64,000 bases of DNA from a virus, in IMG/VR virus record IMGVR_UViG_3300005253_001115, positions 202,641 through 266,640 of that record, one strand, 5' to 3'. The position numbers and the translations under genes were made by a program. Positions 39,638-47,134 of this stretch are shown here, piece by piece. Position 1 is the first letter of the stretch. Each line of letters opens with the position of its first letter. Below the pieces are notes generated by a model. It made no database searches. It saw only the letters and a list, made by a program, of their open reading frames with translations, and was not told the origin of the DNA.

Positions 39638-40038
39638 TTTCTCTCCTCTGCCGCGAAATGCTGCTGAACATCCGACAGAAGCTCGTCCAGCTTCCCCTCA
39701 AGGATGTCCTTGTAGCGATAGGTCTTCCCGGAACGGTGGTCCTTCACACGCTGATCGGACTCGTGATAAGTCCTTACACGTTCTGTACTTGTAGCCTCTA
39801 CTTGCGTTTTAGCGGCCTCTTTCATCAGAGGCACGAGGATATTCGTCATGCGCTTGAAGGCAGCCTTCTTGTTCTTTCCCTGCTCCTTATGCTCCTCGGC
39901 TTTAGCTGTAATCCCAGTTTCTACATGTGTTAATCGAACAGCCGTATCCCTTTTATTTCGATTTTGACCACCTTTGCCGCTAGCGCGGTAGTAGTCGATT
40001 CTGATGTCTTCTTTACGAACTGTCTGTGGCCACGCCAT
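39634..40038 (-). CDS. GGQ release-factor-like protein
   Basis: 134 aa from the ATG at 40038. Residues 17-45 hold SGKGGQNRNKRDTAVRLTH, the GGQ peptidyl-tRNA hydrolysis motif and its helix, followed by KAEEHKEQGKNKKAAF as in RF domain 3/ArfB/PrfH. The codon-recognition domains of RF1/RF2 are absent. A C-terminal YRYKDILEGKLDELL helix resembles RF1/2 ends. It may rescue stalled ribosomes during infection. Known in other large phages; the exact role is inferred. Confidence 0.83.
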   Translation of the reverse strand: MAWPQTVRKEDIRIDYYRASGKGGQNRNKRDTAVRLTHVETGITAKAEEHKEQGKNKKAAFKRMTNILVPLMKEAAKTQVEATSTERVRTYHESDQRVKDHRSGKTYRYKDILEGKLDELLSDVQQHFAAEERK

Positions 40039-40096
40039 TTTGTTTCTCACATGCTTATGTTTAGGAGGGAGTATTACTAAAGAAAGGATCATCTTT

Positions 40097-40900
40097 ATGT
40101 TACTATCATTGCCTTTTGAAGAGATAATTGCACGGTACCAGAAAGGAGAATCCCAAGCACAACTTGCTAATAGCTTTAGTGTAGACCGGCGAACTATTAG
40201 GAGAAGGCTGGTTAAAGCTGATATACCTCTTAGGTCTGGTGGAGAGGCTTCCAAGGTCCAAAAAAACAAAGCCTTTACTGCATCCACTGTGGTAAACGAA
40301 TTGGTCGATGGAATGTTATTAGGTGATGCTTGGATAGAGCAAGGACAAGACAACGCTCGCCTTGGTATTGAAGTGACCAAAAAATCCGAAGGGTGGATAG
40401 AACAGATATCTGATATCCTCACAGCGCACGAGGTCAAGCATTCCATAGGGTATAGAAAACCCAGAGAAAAAATAATAAACGGCATTCATACCCGATCAAA
40501 GGAAAGCGTTATGCTTAGGACCAGTCTATATCCTAATTTTGCTGTCCAAAGACTACGGTGGTATCCAGAAGGTACAAAAATAGTGCCCAGAGATTTAGAA
40601 CTTACTGCAAGTAGTATAGCTCATTGGTATTGGGGTGACGGATCAACCAGCAAGTATATGGTCCGTCTATACACGAACAATTTCTTAGAAAAAGACTGTG
40701 AATTCCTAGTAAGCTGTCTGTTGGAGTTCGGAGTAAGTTTTTCAATAAGCAAAAGTCGCAAAAATCCTGTTCTTAGTCTGTACAACAATTCTGAAAGAGA
40801 AAGGTTTCTGGACCTAGTTCGGGACCACGTTCCAGAATGTTTCGAATACAAAGTACAAAAACCTGTAATAGTGAGAAGAAGCAAGCCTACTCTTTTTTGA
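40097..40900 (+). CDS. LAGLIDADG homing endonuclease-like protein
   Basis: 267 aa from the ATG at 40097. An N-terminal helix-turn-helix (GESQAQLANSF...RRTIRRRL) is followed by the two LAGLIDADG-type helices (ELVDGMLLGDAW and IAHWYWGDGS) of a single-chain enzyme. The gene is A+T-rich with AGA and ATA codons, unlike its neighbours, which points to recent transfer. It lies directly upstream of the hairpin array with no terminator between. Confidence 0.82.
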   Translation: MLLSLPFEEIIARYQKGESQAQLANSFSVDRRTIRRRLVKADIPLRSGGEASKVQKNKAFTASTVVNELVDGMLLGDAWIEQGQDNARLGIEVTKKSEGWIEQISDILTAHEVKHSIGYRKPREKIINGIHTRSKESVMLRTSLYPNFAVQRLRWYPEGTKIVPRDLELTASSIAHWYWGDGSTSKYMVRLYTNNFLEKDCEFLVSCLLEFGVSFSISKSRKNPVLSLYNNSERERFLDLVRDHVPECFEYKVQKPVIVRRSKPTLF

Positions 40901-40906
40901 AAATTC

Positions 40907-40962
40907 CTGCGCCGTAGACACCATAGTACCGGATTACACTGTCATGTTGGTCTACGGCGCAG
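40907..40962 (+). repeat. Hairpin unit 1
   Basis: Perfect 13-bp stem CTGCGCCGTAGAC/GTCTACGGCGCAG around a 30-nt loop whose centre is GGATTACA with 11 nt on each side. Confidence 0.9.
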
Positions 40963-40965
40963 AAC

Positions 40966-41015
40966 GAGGCACGGCATTCTCCTTTTGGATTACACTGCTA
41001 TGTAGGACGTTCCTC
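40966..41015 (+). repeat. Hairpin unit 2
   Basis: 10-bp stem with two mismatches (GAGGCACGGC/GACGTTCCTC); 30-nt loop, core GGATTACA. The loop differs from that of unit 5 at two positions. Confidence 0.85.
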
Positions 41016-41027
41016 TTTGAAAATTCC

Positions 41028-41081
41028 TGCGCCGCAGACATCATAATGTCGGGTTACATCACCGAGTCGGTCTGCGGCGCA
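41028..41081 (+). repeat. Hairpin unit 3
   Basis: 12-bp stem TGCGCCGCAGAC/GTCTGCGGCGCA; 30-nt loop with core GGGTTACA. The stem differs from unit 1 by a compensated T-A to C-G change. Confidence 0.9.
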
Positions 41082-41092
41082 AGTTAAAATGT

Positions 41093-41145
41093 AGTAGACA
41101 CGGCAAGACCACTCGGGCTACAACTTCAACACGGCCGTGTCTACT
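41093..41145 (+). repeat. Hairpin unit 4
   Basis: Perfect 12-bp stem AGTAGACACGGC/GCCGTGTCTACT; loop of 29 nt with core GGGCTACA, the only loop one base short. Confidence 0.9.
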
Positions 41146-41157
41146 GTGTTAGAAAAG

Positions 41158-41207
41158 GAGGCGCGACATTCTCCTTTTGGGTTACACTGCTATGTGGGCC
41201 GTGCCTC
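41158..41207 (+). repeat. Hairpin unit 5
   Basis: 10-bp stem with one mismatch and one wobble (GAGGCGCGAC/GCCGTGCCTC); 30-nt loop with core GGGTTACA. An alternative AAAAGGAG/CTCCTTTT pairing lies at 41153-41178. Confidence 0.87.
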
Positions 41208-41218
41208 TTTGAAAATTC

Positions 41219-41276
41219 CTGCGCTGCATGGCACGGCTCTGGGGGGTTACAACATCGCTAAGGCCACACAGCGCAG
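41219..41276 (+). repeat. Hairpin unit 6
   Basis: 14-bp stem with a 2x2 internal mismatch (CTGCGCTGCATGGC/GCCACACAGCGCAG); 30-nt loop with core GGGTTACA. Confidence 0.88.
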
Positions 41277-41286
41277 GTTAAAATGT

Positions 41287-41340
41287 AGTAGACACGGCAT
41301 ATCCCAAACGGGTTACAACATTCTGCTGGCCGTGTCTACT
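41287..41340 (+). repeat. Hairpin unit 7
   Basis: Perfect 12-bp stem identical to unit 4; 30-nt loop with core GGGTTACA but different flanking 11-mers, showing that loop and stem vary separately. Confidence 0.9.
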
Positions 41341-41349
41341 TTCGTTAGA

Positions 41350-42174
41350 TCAATCCGATACCTTCCGCCACTGCTTCCACAGTTCCCGCAGGATGCGCTT
41401 CGACAGGAGCCTACGCTGGTGTAGGAAGATGTGGCCCGTTGTCCAGTCAGGGTGTGCAGCAGCAGCTTTGGCCTTCACTCCCTCAGAATATTGGTAGAAT
41501 TCATTGTTGGTCTTCTTGCCGTTCTGGTGAACAGTACCCTGCACAACGAACATCATGGATCTCCTGCTCGGGTTGTAACCGTGCAGTTTAGCCATTTCAG
41601 TGCCACGTCGAAGGCGCTGGCGAACCATGGGATCTTGCGCATTCTCGGACACCATACCTAGCCCAAAACGCTTCCACAATTTAGCGGGCGTGGCGAAATT
41701 ACGCAAGTCGGCTCCGGCTTCTGCCAATATCCTTCCTACAGCTAGGAGGCTCAGGCCGGGGGTTCCTTTACCGGGGCGACCAACCCACGAAGCGATCGGC
41801 ATACCTGCCACTATGGCAGTGATGTCTTTGTGGTATTGCCTTATTTGGGGGTCGAAGCCCCTGATAGCAGGGACCATAGCGAGCGCCATAATCTCCACTT
41901 TCGCAGCAAATACCTCTATTGGGTCGGTGGAGGTCCGATCAATCTCGTCAGGCTTCACATGCAACATCCACTTTTTGTGGACGGCAGTTGCCAGCGCTCC
42001 GTCTTTTGTGCAGAGAGCGTACTTCTTAACGAAGCACGTCTTACCTTTGCAGTGGTGGTCCTGCACAGCACGCTTGATGACGCCATGTAACTGCTGGTTG
42101 AGGGACTCTCTTGCTCTCTCAAGATTCAGACAATCTCTATGGAGGCCGAGGAGTTTAGTGATTTCGTTGTGCAT
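41350..42174 (-). CDS. IS110-type (Transposase_20) protein lacking the RuvC-like domain
   Basis: 274 aa. From about residue 130 it follows the C-terminal domain of IS110/IS1111 recombinases: GTPGLSLLAVGRILAEAGAD, FATPAKLWKRFGLGMV, an SRRS segment, YQYSEGVKAKA and a final LLSKRILRELWKQW helix. The N-terminus is a coiled helix plus a basic Cys/His stretch, without the DEDD RuvC-like nuclease block that normally precedes it. The gene sits between hairpin clusters, and unit 8 lies just before its start (AAGGA site). It could bind or recombine the hairpins; catalytic competence is uncertain. Confidence 0.72.
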   Translation of the reverse strand: MHNEITKLLGLHRDCLNLERARESLNQQLHGVIKRAVQDHHCKGKTCFVKKYALCTKDGALATAVHKKWMLHVKPDEIDRTSTDPIEVFAAKVEIMALAMVPAIRGFDPQIRQYHKDITAIVAGMPIASWVGRPGKGTPGLSLLAVGRILAEAGADLRNFATPAKLWKRFGLGMVSENAQDPMVRQRLRRGTEMAKLHGYNPSRRSMMFVVQGTVHQNGKKTNNEFYQYSEGVKAKAAAAHPDWTTGHIFLHQRRLLSKRILRELWKQWRKVSD

Positions 42175-42189
42175 TTTCTAATCCTTGTA

Positions 42190-42245
42190 GGAGCGGCACG
42201 GAATGCTCCAAACGGGTTACACTGCATCTATGTCCGTGCCGCTCC
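42190..42245 (+). repeat. Hairpin unit 8
   Basis: Perfect 13-bp stem GGAGCGGCACGGA/TCCGTGCCGCTCC; 30-nt loop, core GGGTTACA. It occupies the leader of the IS110-type gene (opposite strand). Confidence 0.9.
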
Positions 42246-42252
42246 GTAATAT

Positions 42253-42308
42253 AGGGCGGTTGGTCAATGAGATTTCGGGTTACAAATGGGAGTTGGACCA
42301 ACCATCCT
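42253..42308 (+). repeat. Hairpin unit 9
   Basis: 13-bp stem with one mismatch and one wobble (AGGGCGGTTGGTC/GACCAACCATCCT); 30-nt loop, core GGGTTACA. Confidence 0.88.
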
Positions 42309-42316
42309 GTAAAGTT

Positions 42317-42372
42317 GGGGCGACGCCGCACAGCGGATTCGGGTTGCATGAGCGCATCGACAGCGTAGCCCC
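42317..42372 (+). repeat. Hairpin unit 10
   Basis: 13-bp stem with three mismatches (GGGGCGACGCCGC/ACAGCGTAGCCCC); 30-nt loop, core GGGTTGCA. Confidence 0.8.
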
Positions 42373-42384
42373 TTTGTAAGTTAT

Positions 42385-42438
42385 GAGCGGCGCGACACTC
42401 TCCCAAAGGGTTGCATCACGGCGGTGGTCGCGCCGCTC
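42385..42438 (+). repeat. Hairpin unit 11
   Basis: Perfect 12-bp stem GAGCGGCGCGAC/GTCGCGCCGCTC; 30-nt loop, core GGGTTGCA. Confidence 0.9.
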
Positions 42439-42456
42439 TGTTATATTGAGTATTTT

Positions 42457-42512
42457 AGTGAGGTTGGTCACTCTTCTAGAGGGTTACACCGGTCTTTTGG
42501 ACCAGCCTCACT
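42457..42512 (+). repeat. Hairpin unit 12
   Basis: 13-bp stem with one G-T wobble (AGTGAGGTTGGTC/GACCAGCCTCACT); 30-nt loop, core GGGTTACA. It ends just before the stop of the next minus-strand gene. Confidence 0.9.
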
Positions 42513-42517
42513 GTGAT

Positions 42518-43099
42518 TTACATGTAAGTCCTCTCGCGTAGTCTCTCGACAAACTCATCCTGAACGACTGAGCCTACCGTGCGCTTGTCTCCGGCGGAGA
42601 CGCCTTCGGCCTGCATCTTGTCTGCAATGGCGAAGAGCATCCGTGCGTCACGTCCGAAGGTGCCAGACTTCTTGTCTCGCATCTGCGCCTCGGTGGTCAC
42701 CTGATCGAACGTAGCAGAGCGCAACTTCACGCCCCCGTGGGTCAGGTAGAATGTGTCCATGTAGAGCGCAGCGACGGTCTCAGCACTTGCTGCGTCGGCT
42801 GCTGCTGTTCTCTTGGACTTGTTTGGCTTGGCGGCTCCGGTTGAGGGTGCCTGGGGCGTGATAGGCAGAACCCGAGACTGCGACCGAAGTCGCTGCACGA
42901 TGTTGTTGATCTGACTGTTGGCGAAGCGCTTCCAGACTTCCGTCTCGATAGCAGACGCCATCGCAGGGCTCAGATTATCAATCTCAGCATCAGCGACAGC
43001 AAGAAAGGCAGCTTTCGCCTTCTCCCAATCTCCGCTGCTTGCTGTCCACGCTGTCTCAGCCCACTTGGCAAAGACCTCTTCTATGTCTACGGAACTCAT
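42518..43099 (-). CDS. Hypothetical protein between hairpin clusters
   Basis: 193 aa. Helical N-terminal 70 residues, a Pro/Ser/Lys linker (TPQAPSTGAAKPNKSKRTAA), then a C-terminal block (YMDTFYLTHGGVKLRSATFD...RDARMLFAIADKM). No family is recognised. It is flanked by clusters of hairpin units on both sides and lies upstream of the IS110-type gene in the same direction, so it may belong to the same system. Confidence 0.65.
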   Translation of the reverse strand: MSSVDIEEVFAKWAETAWTASSGDWEKAKAAFLAVADAEIDNLSPAMASAIETEVWKRFANSQINNIVQRLRSQSRVLPITPQAPSTGAAKPNKSKRTAAADAASAETVAALYMDTFYLTHGGVKLRSATFDQVTTEAQMRDKKSGTFGRDARMLFAIADKMQAEGVSAGDKRTVGSVVQDEFVERLRERTYM

Positions 43100-43147
43100 A
43101 CGTTTTCCTTCTTTATCCCCGTGGCAAAATCGCCCGGTGGAAATGTA

Positions 43148-43199
43148 GCGGTCCTGACACCTTGAAAGTGGGTTACAAGTTCTTTATGGTCAGGACCGC
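43148..43199 (+). repeat. Hairpin unit 13
   Basis: Perfect 11-bp stem GCGGTCCTGAC/GTCAGGACCGC; 30-nt loop, core GGGTTACA. Confidence 0.9.
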
Positions 43200-43212
43200 C
43201 GTTGAAGTATAG

Positions 43213-43263
43213 CAGGTCGGTCAGTGGCGACAAGGGTTACAAACACAGAAAGGACCGACACTG
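43213..43263 (+). repeat. Hairpin unit 14
   Basis: 7-bp perfect inner stem GGTCGGTC-type pairing (GTCGGTC/GACCGAC) with an outer CAG/CTG pairing after a bulge; 30-nt loop, core GGGTTACA. Confidence 0.82.
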
Positions 43264-43291: not shown

Positions 43292-43747
43292 TCAGCTTTC
43301 AACCTCTTTCTTCTCCAAGTAGAAGAAATCCAGACCCTCAGGTTCTTTCTCTCCTCGAAAGATGAGAGCAGCAGCCCCCATGCAAATATTGTCACCTAGG
43401 ATCTTCTGTACCTTGGCAACCGCTTGCCCAGAAGACACCACATCGTCCACGATAAGGTACTTCTTTTTGCTGAACCCAGGGCCGCGCGTGCGGTTCTCCA
43501 GGGTTAGCACCTTCACTCGTGGCTTGTTGAGTATCCCGGCCACCACGAAGGCAAGCTCGATGCCGCCGATAATCGGGGTGGCGATAAAGTCTATCTCGTC
43601 TCGCAACGTTTCGGGGATCAACTCTGCAAGTTGCTCTGCATACTCTGTCGTAGCTCGGCTGTCGAGTAGATCGAAGTCGTAGTAATACGGAGAACTCCTA
43701 CCAGAGGTAAGTTCGTGGTCTTCTTTGATCCGGCATTCCTCGAACAT
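43292..43747 (-). CDS. Orotate phosphoribosyltransferase-like enzyme
   Basis: 151 aa type I PRTase. Starts with LTSGRSSPYYYDFD, as in OPRT, and has the PRPP-binding loop YLIVDDVVSSGQ. It is shorter than bacterial OPRT (about 210 aa). It would attach ribose-5-phosphate from PRPP to a pyrimidine-like base; a PRPP synthetase lies at 45915-46898, supporting a phage-boosted nucleotide pathway. Substrate not proven. Confidence 0.78.
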   Translation of the reverse strand: MFEECRIKEDHELTSGRSSPYYYDFDLLDSRATTEYAEQLAELIPETLRDEIDFIATPIIGGIELAFVVAGILNKPRVKVLTLENRTRGPGFSKKKYLIVDDVVSSGQAVAKVQKILGDNICMGAAALIFRGEKEPEGLDFFYLEKKEVES

Positions 43748-45914: not shown

Positions 45915-46898
45915 TTAGATCGTTTCTCTGAAAAGCGAGGAGATGCTCTCTTCGTTGTTGGTGCGGCGAATTGCCTCACCCATTAGAGGTGCGATGCTTA
46001 CTACCTGCACCTTGTTGTAACCGTCGTTCTCGGCGTTACGCGGGATTGGGTCTCGGGCAATCAAAGCCACTGTATCGGTGGTGAGCAGCTTCGTGAGCCC
46101 CTTCGTGTTGCCCATAGTCTTGTAGGCGTTCCCCGAGAGAACCGGGTGTGTGATGGCCGCAATGGCGCTCGTTGCGCCCTGCTCCATCAGGGCATCGACG
46201 CCCTTGCACAAGGTACCGGCAGTGTCGATCATATCGTCAACAATCACGCAGACTTGACCCTCCACATCGCCTACGATATTCATGACTTCGTTCTCGTTGG
46301 AGCGAGCACGCCGCTTGTCGATGATGGCGATCGGTGCCTCAAGCCTCTTGGCGTAAGCCCGTGCCCTCTCTGTACCACCAGCATCCGGCGATATGATAGT
46401 GAAGGGGGTGAGTCCCACTTCCTTGCGGACAGATTCCAATAGAACAGGCTTGGCGTACAGGTTGTCTACCGGGCAATCGAAGAACGCCTGGATCTGCCCG
46501 GCATGCAGGTCCATGCACATTACACGGTCTGCGCCAGCCCTGTCGATCAGGGACGCTACCAGCTTGGAAGTGATGGGCATTCGAGCAGCGTTCTGCTGGT
46601 CCTGGCGAGAGTACCCGAAGTACGGGATGACTGCTGTGATGCGACCAGCAGAGGACCGACGCAAGGCGTCGATCATAATGAGCAGTTCCATCAGGTTCCG
46701 GTTGGTGTGGGGCGGGCAAGTCGGTTGGACGATGAAACAATCAGCGCCTCTTACGTTCTCCCCGATTGCTACCTTGATCTCACCGTCGCTGAAACGATCT
46801 ACCTCGGCCTTGCCTAGAGGGCGGTCCAGATAATCAGCCACGTCGTGGGCTAGCTGGGGGTTGGCGTTTCCAGTGAATACCCGGATATCACCCTTCAT
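45915..46898 (-). CDS. Ribose-phosphate pyrophosphokinase (PRPP synthetase)
   Basis: 327 aa from the ATG at 46898 (AAGGAG site). Family marks: RFSDGE, YFGYSRQDQ, MDLHAGQIQAFF and the PRPP loop CVIVDDMIDTAGT. It makes PRPP from ribose-5-phosphate and ATP, feeding purine, pyrimidine and NAD pathways. Full length compared with bacterial Prs. With the OPRT-like gene at 43292 it suggests a phage-encoded PRPP pathway. Confidence 0.93.
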   Translation of the reverse strand: MKGDIRVFTGNANPQLAHDVADYLDRPLGKAEVDRFSDGEIKVAIGENVRGADCFIVQPTCPPHTNRNLMELLIMIDALRRSSAGRITAVIPYFGYSRQDQQNAARMPITSKLVASLIDRAGADRVMCMDLHAGQIQAFFDCPVDNLYAKPVLLESVRKEVGLTPFTIISPDAGGTERARAYAKRLEAPIAIIDKRRARSNENEVMNIVGDVEGQVCVIVDDMIDTAGTLCKGVDALMEQGATSAIAAITHPVLSGNAYKTMGNTKGLTKLLTTDTVALIARDPIPRNAENDGYNKVQVVSIAPLMGEAIRRTNNEESISSLFRETI

Positions 46899-46909
46899 TC
46901 CTCGCTCCT

Positions 46910-47134
46910 TCATTTGTTGTACCATATGACGTGGGTGAATTCACCCCGGTTTTTTCCTTGCTTGAAGTCCGATGGGAGGAACTCGATACTGGTTTTGTGG
47001 GTGGCGGTTGCATAGTACGCAATACCGTCACTATCGATGATGGCCCCGCTCTCCAGTATAGAGGAAAACTCCTCTTTAGTAAAGTGATCCCCAAAGTCAG
47101 GCAGAGGGCTGAGGGTGAAGTTGTCGTCACTCAT
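46910..47134 (-). CDS. Hypothetical small protein
   Basis: 74 aa, MSDDNFTLSPLPDFGDHFTK start and a C-terminal FTHVIWYNK strand. Coupled to the gene upstream by overlap. No family is recognised. Confidence 0.58.
   Translation of the reverse strand: MSDDNFTLSPLPDFGDHFTKEEFSSILESGAIIDSDGIAYYATATHKTSIEFLPSDFKQGKNRGEFTHVIWYNK

What the first reader, a model, noticed from the sequence alone, without database searches (positions are those of the whole stretch)
40907..43263. Fourteen-unit array of stem plus fixed 30-nt loop hairpins with a constant central 8-mer
Seen: 14 units in three clusters (40907-41340, 42190-42512, 43148-43263). Each has inverted-repeat arms of 7-14 bp closing a loop of 30 nt (29 in unit 4). 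The loop is always 11 nt, then GGGTTACA (variants GGATTACA, GGGCTACA, GGGTTGCA), then 11 nt. All are on the plus strand. The loop starts with A and ends with G in nearly all. Arms change in a compensated way (unit 1 T-A to unit 3 C-G) while loop 11-mers change independently of arms (units 4 and 7 share a stem, not loops). A/T-rich linkers such as GTTAAAATGTAG separate some units. Fixed geometry with variable segments suggests selected structure: guide-like RNAs, protein-bound RNA hairpins or DNA recombination sites. I know of no described family with this layout.
Basis: seen in the sequence. Interest (0 to 1): 0.97.

Follow-up and report, generated by a model that had tools for sequence, protein, structure and literature searches.

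The report
Jumbo-phage TIGR-Tas stem-loop guide array
The fourteen hairpins are almost certainly the guide-RNA array of a TIGR-TasA system, a recently described CRISPR-like but nuclease-free RNA-guided DNA-binding system, here in a large phage genome; it is a clear new member of a known family, not a new one.

Summary
In detail: 14 hairpins in three clusters, 30-nt loops (29 in unit 4), constant central 8-mer. It has a name: a TIGR stem-loop array (Faure et al., Science 2025, PMC12045711). The gene between clusters 1 and 2 (41350-42174, minus) encodes a 274-aa Nop-domain protein; it matches NCBIfam TIGR_Tas (E 1e-10), and the profile of its relatives matches solved TasH. It has no nuclease domain, so it is a TasA. 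The same unit occurs 128 times on the tas strand and once on the other in 58 Tas loci (13 here, 115 in 27 others), and in cultured phages (Gordonia Morrissey, Mycobacterium Rich). The published example has a TasA and 13 stem-loops in three subarrays; this locus has 14 in three. Likely action: guided, nuclease-free DNA binding; targets unknown. New side observations: units sharing a stem carry unrelated spacers, and many related arrays keep the tas reading frame open.

The parts
41350..42174 (-). tasA gene: 274-aa solo Nop-domain protein (IS110/Nop5-like RNA-binding domain, N-terminal coiled coil, no nuclease domain)
   Evidence: NCBIfam NF052498 TIGR_Tas E 1.1e-10; family profile matches PDB 9mty (E 4e-21) and TasH 21kl (E 7e-11); AlphaFold2 pLDDT 89.7, best folds IS621/ISCro4/Nop56-58/Nop5/Prp31 with weak E-values
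40907..41340 (-). stem-loop subarray of 7 units (1-7), downstream of tasA in the direction of transcription
   Evidence: 36-nt cores: 40917-40952, 40973-41008, 41037-41072, 41102-41136 (29-nt loop), 41165-41200, 41230-41265, 41296-41331
42190..42512 (-). stem-loop subarray of 5 units (8-12), just upstream of tasA
   Evidence: 36-nt cores: 42200-42235, 42263-42298, 42327-42362, 42394-42429, 42467-42502
43148..43263 (-). stem-loop subarray of 2 units (13, 14)
   Evidence: 36-nt cores: 43156-43191, 43220-43255
42518..43099 (-). 193-aa protein of unknown function between subarrays 2 and 3; membership in the system not shown
   Evidence: no family above threshold; no relative in named phages nor in the other Tas loci

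Best explanation
[quoted passage not shown] The minus strand is transcribed through tasA and the three subarrays. The long RNA is cut in the A/T-rich linkers into single hairpins (tigRNAs). In each, the stem end (C-C/A on the 5' side, U-G on the 3' side) and the central UG-N4-CC form two equivalent box C/D pairs that bind the two protomers of a TasA dimer; the two spacers of about 9 nt between them stay free. Spacer A pairs with one strand and spacer B with the other strand of adjacent halves of a DNA target of about 18 bp, which is opened and bent. Having no nuclease, TasA most likely blocks the bound DNA (transcription or replication of a rival element, or gene regulation) instead of cutting it. 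Shown here: anatomy, homology, strand, box and spacer layout. Inferred from published experiments on relatives: processing, dimer binding, tandem targeting. Not known: the targets and the benefit to the phage.
For: tasA matches the TIGR_Tas family; all 34 aligned members do so, and their profile matches solved TasH and a TasR-like chain. [quoted passage not shown] Invariant bases in the 13 full-length loops are C1, U12-G13, C18-C19 and U30, plus a conserved A-rich tetraloop; TasR boxes are UG and CCA with 9-nt spacers. The same 30-nt unit recurs beside Tas genes in 27 other loci: in all 128 sense, 1 antisense, 1 in shuffled sequence, with box C reading CCA in about 75%. A Tas relative in Microcystis phage Mvi-JY20 is followed by a classic dual-repeat TIGR array (UGCGAGCC / CGAAACCC) on the same strand. 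L026 has the identical repeat UGUAACCC around and within its tas. Stems change in a compensated way.
Against: The match of this TasA to NF052498 (41.9 bits) is below that model's equivalog cut-off of 100, and its branch is long. Fold matches have weak E-values (best 0.039, probability 0.98). No target was found: spacer-pair hits in the phage's own genome equal those of shuffled spacers. No RNA data exist for this phage; the G:U wobble test for the strand was not decisive (4 against 3). The third base of box C is loose here (A in 7 of 13 at the edge and 3 of 13 in the loop).
Confidence: 0.93

Rival explanations
1. A degenerate IS110-type transposon whose bridge RNA multiplied, so that the hairpins guide (or once guided) DNA insertion.
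For: The protein carries the IS110-like C-terminal RNA-binding domain (PHROG 'transposase') and its best fold matches are IS621/ISCro4.
Against: No DEDD catalytic domain in 274 aa; one protein copy in the genome; 14 two-spacer units with box C/D rather than one two-loop bridge RNA; NCBIfam gives TIGR_Tas and does not list IS110 for this protein.
Confidence: 0.02
2. Box C/D-type guide RNAs that direct modification or binding of RNA rather than DNA.
For: Nop domain and box C/D layout are shared with snoRNPs; published TIGR stem-loop units are called snoRNA-like.
Against: No fibrillarin was seen (but only part of the genome was annotated); boxes are the short UG/CC(A) of TIGR, with no K-turn; studied TIGR effectors target DNA and TasR did not act on RNA.
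Confidence: 0.04
3. DNA-level elements (recombination or protein-binding sites), or RNA hairpins acting as terminators or processing signals between genes.
For: They lie in the gaps between minus-strand genes and have a constant central 8-mer.
Against: Stems vary with compensation, the loop halves are not inverted repeats, there is no excess of terminator patterns, and the same units accompany Tas genes in unrelated phages on one strand only.
Confidence: 0.01

Closest known systems
TIGR-TasA with stem-loop array, Peromyscus leucopus gut contig (Faure et al. 2025, Fig. 7)
   Same: TasA without nuclease; 13 stem-loops in three subarrays against 14 in three here; two spacers between box C and box D; palindromic stems; linkers between units
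   Different: Sequences could not be compared (not held). Here the central segment is constant (UGUAACCC) and the spacers are ~9 nt in a fixed 30-nt loop, the form the paper regards as a possible intermediate to dual-repeat arrays
Dual-repeat TIGR-Tas (TaTasR, SpTasH, FpTasA; here Microcystis phage Mvi-JY20)
   Same: UG...CC(A) boxes, 9-nt spacer pairs, related Tas protein, array on the tas strand
   Different: Edge repeats replaced by 7-15-bp stems of variable sequence
IS110 family transposase with bridge RNA (IS621)
   Same: Nop-like RNA-binding domain; tandem guides in an RNA loop
   Different: No DEDD domain, no insertion element, many units
Archaeal/eukaryotic box C/D snoRNP (Nop5, Nop56/58)
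   Same: Nop domain, two guides between C and D boxes
   Different: No L7Ae-type K-turn, no fibrillarin seen; DNA rather than RNA is the expected target

Membership tests
TIGR-Tas | Tas protein with Nop domain of the TIGR family next to the array | tested here: met
   NF052498 E 1.1e-10, though below the equivalog cut-off; profile matches PDB TasH and 9mty; AlphaFold model resembles IS110/Nop proteins with weak E-values
[quoted passage not shown]
   C..UG..CC..U invariant in 13 of 13 full-length units, two spacers of 9 (10) nt
[quoted passage not shown]
   125 of 140 own-arm pairs, 0 of 20,000 shuffles
TIGR-Tas | Array up- and/or downstream of the tas gene (same strand in all relatives seen here) | tested here: met
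   7 units downstream, 7 upstream, sense; 128:1 across relatives
TasA subtype | No nuclease domain | tested here: met
   274 aa, all-helical model, no Pfam nuclease
TIGR-Tas | Array transcribed and processed into unit-size tigRNAs bound by Tas | not testable with these tools
   needs RNA sequencing
TIGR-Tas | Spacers A and B bind opposite strands of adjacent target DNA | tested here: inconclusive
   no own-genome site above chance; host and true targets unknown
IS110 transposase | DEDD (RuvC-like) catalytic domain plus C-terminal domain | tested here: not met
   no such domain

The most novel reading that the evidence does not exclude
Stem-loop TIGR arrays have an unrecognised spacer-exchange process: pre-existing stems are kept while both spacers of a unit are replaced as a whole. 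In many relatives the array is, moreover, read as part of the tas coding frame. The jumbo-phage TasA would then be a re-programmable, nuclease-free DNA silencer.
Probability: 0.25. Interest if true: 0.75.

Novelty: new member of a known kind. Interest (0 to 1): 0.45.

Why it matters
TIGR-Tas was published in 2025 mostly from metagenome contigs, and neither natural targets nor the way spacers change is known. This locus adds a jumbo-phage member with a strictly regular 30-nt loop. The same search turned up stem-loop arrays in phages that can be grown on laboratory hosts (Gordonia phage Morrissey, Mycobacterium phage Rich on M. smegmatis mc2 155, Rhizobium phage RHph_X2_25), so expression, targets and knock-outs can be tested directly. 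The complete spacer difference between units with one and the same stem bears on the open question of how these arrays grow.

Tried and rejected
Own-genome targets: spacer A plus reverse complement of B (gap 0-2, the order I derived from the published 8-nt 3' overhangs) and the reverse order gave no more hits than shuffled spacers; 239 spacer pairs from all loci against 1.06 Mb of fetched DNA gave no excess over re-paired controls. Strand by G:U wobbles: 4 against 3, not decisive. Rfam: no hit. DNA similarity to named phages: none. Relative search with the TasA alone: none; it needed the alignment with L026 and Mvi-JY20. A phage-type PeSL (promoter plus stem-loop cassette) reading, recalled from memory, was dropped: promoter-like hits are at chance level. 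attC/dif-like recombination sites were dropped: the loop halves are not inverted repeats of each other.

Full report
WHAT IS THERE. The window is part of a 266,640-base virus record (G000:C1:202641-266640) with phage genes such as ribonucleotide reductase, clamp loader, UvsX-like recombinase, sigma factor and a virion structural protein. In three gaps between minus-strand genes lie 7, 5 and 2 hairpins with stems of 7-15 bp around loops of 30 nt (29 in unit 4). Chance is excluded for loop length, 8-mer and arm pairing (125 of 140 pairs; shuffles mean 65, maximum 106 of 20,000). No other part of the record has such units.

THE PROTEIN. The ORF at 41350-42174 (minus) has a weak PHROG hit to a transposase family. 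NCBIfam names it better: NF052498 TIGR_Tas, E 1.1e-10, below the equivalog cut-off of 100 bits; the relative in L026 just passes the cut-off and the one in Microcystis phage Mvi-JY20 passes it widely. All 34 aligned members hit this model. Their profile matches two solved sequences: 9mty (331 aa, deposited as IS116/IS110/IS902 C-terminal domain protein; the length equals that given for TaTasR in PMC12045711, so I take it to be TasR) and TasH (21kl and others). The AlphaFold2 model (pLDDT 89.7, pTM 0.85) is nearly all-helical with a long N-terminal helix; the best structural matches are IS621, ISCro4, Nop56/58-type proteins of the SSU processome, Nop5 and Prp31, with weak E-values (0.04-1.4) but Foldseek probabilities up to 0.98; unrelated helical proteins also appear lower in the list. 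There is no nuclease domain. This is a TasA.

THE UNIT AND ITS STRAND. On the tas strand each unit reads stem-C-N10-UG-NNNN-CC-N10-U-stem; the apical stem pair is C-G in 12 of 14. PMC12045711 gives box D as UG and box C as CCA in TasR, with 9-nt spacers. Among units beside Tas genes of other phage contigs, the base after CC (or after the stem-closing C-C) is A in about three quarters, so box C is CCA and the spacers are 9 nt. The layout is found 128 times on the tas strand (13 here, 115 in 27 other loci), once on the other strand and once in shuffled sequence. In this phage the A of box C is loose (7 of 13 at the edge, 3 of 13 in the loop). The core, 3 stem bases + 30 + 3 stem bases, is 36 nt, the tigRNA length of dual-repeat systems; stem-loop tigRNAs are cut further out, in the linkers.

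COMPARISON WITH THE KNOWN SYSTEM. [quoted passage not shown] The present locus, TasA plus 14 stem-loops in three subarrays, meets each sequence-level criterion. L026 (IMGVR_UViG_3300049893_002378) carries the same central UGUAACCC but very short edges with conserved linkers, in appearance an intermediate between the two array types. Mvi-JY20 has a relative of this TasA followed by a plain dual-repeat array (UGCGAGCC / CGAAACCC, 9-nt spacers) and a terminator-like hairpin.

HOW IT MOST LIKELY WORKS. By homology: transcription through the array, processing at A/T-rich linkers such as CUACAUUUUAAC, binding of each hairpin by a TasA dimer through the two box C/D pairs, and tandem pairing of spacer A and spacer B to opposite strands of adjacent DNA halves. 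The paper suggests blocking of transcription or replication, or aid to recombination, for TasA. None of these steps was tested in this phage. Target searches were negative, which says little while the host is unknown.

NEW OBSERVATIONS. (a) In 48 pairs of units in one locus that share a stem (15 or more of 16 arm bases), spacer identity is near the random level (means about 2.6 and 2.5 of 9) and in no pair are 7 or more of 9 bases alike in either spacer. In this window units 4 and 7 have identical 12-bp stems and linkers but unrelated spacers, while units 2 and 5 share both spacers and differ in their stems. So either spacers are exchanged within standing stems or they diverge very fast. (b) In related loci, units upstream of the conserved Tas domain have 16 stop codons in the tas frame against 51 and 72 in the other two frames (159 units, 2350 codons per frame); several tas ORFs run open through 5-11 units (L088, L073, L080, L096) or continue through them at the C-terminus (L111, L105). 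The main text of the paper has no mention of in-frame arrays under the terms searched; its supplements were not read. In the window the array is not in the tas frame. (c) Stem-loop arrays lie beside the Tas relatives of Gordonia phage Morrissey (7 units), Mycobacterium phage Rich (3), Rhizobium phage RHph_X2_25 (4) and perhaps Arthrobacter phage Talia1610; all these proteins are annotated as hypothetical.

VERDICT. A well-supported new member of the TIGR-TasA stem-loop systems; ordinary in kind, but recent, little studied, and now tied to phages that can be grown.

Noticed in passing
L088, L090, L073, L080, L096, L068, L105, L111 (Tas loci); L026:367-1557; Mycobacterium phage Rich gp50 (L124:2548-3531): Stem-loop guide arrays lie inside the open tas reading frame; upstream units show 16 stops in the tas frame against 51 and 72 in the other frames. 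The arrays may be translated as part of Tas.
   Followed up: partly
window units 4/7 and 48 unit pairs in related loci: Units with the same stem carry completely unrelated spacers, pointing to spacer exchange or very fast spacer change.
   Followed up: partly
L122 (Gordonia phage Morrissey gp42), L124 (Mycobacterium phage Rich gp50), L121 (Rhizobium phage RHph_X2_25), L123 (Arthrobacter phage Talia1610 gp255): Cultured phages with Tas proteins annotated 'hypothetical' and stem-loop units with the 30-nt (Talia1610: 31-nt) loop around them.
   Followed up: partly
L062:4505-4850 (Microcystis phage Mvi-JY20): Unannotated dual-repeat TIGR array with a terminator-like hairpin directly after the tas gene XAI95461.
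   Followed up: partly
L108, L105, L109, L111: Variants with longer loops (34-47 nt) in which the central segment itself forms a small hairpin, e.g. UG-CCGAAAGG-CC.
   Followed up: no
window 40004-40900 (+): Free-standing LAGLIDADG homing endonuclease whose reading frame overlaps the antisense end of a release-factor-like (RF-1 domain) gene and ends 7 bases before the array.
   Followed up: no
window 43292-43747 (-), 45915-46925 (-): A possible phosphoribosyltransferase and a ribose-phosphate pyrophosphokinase near the array.
   Followed up: no
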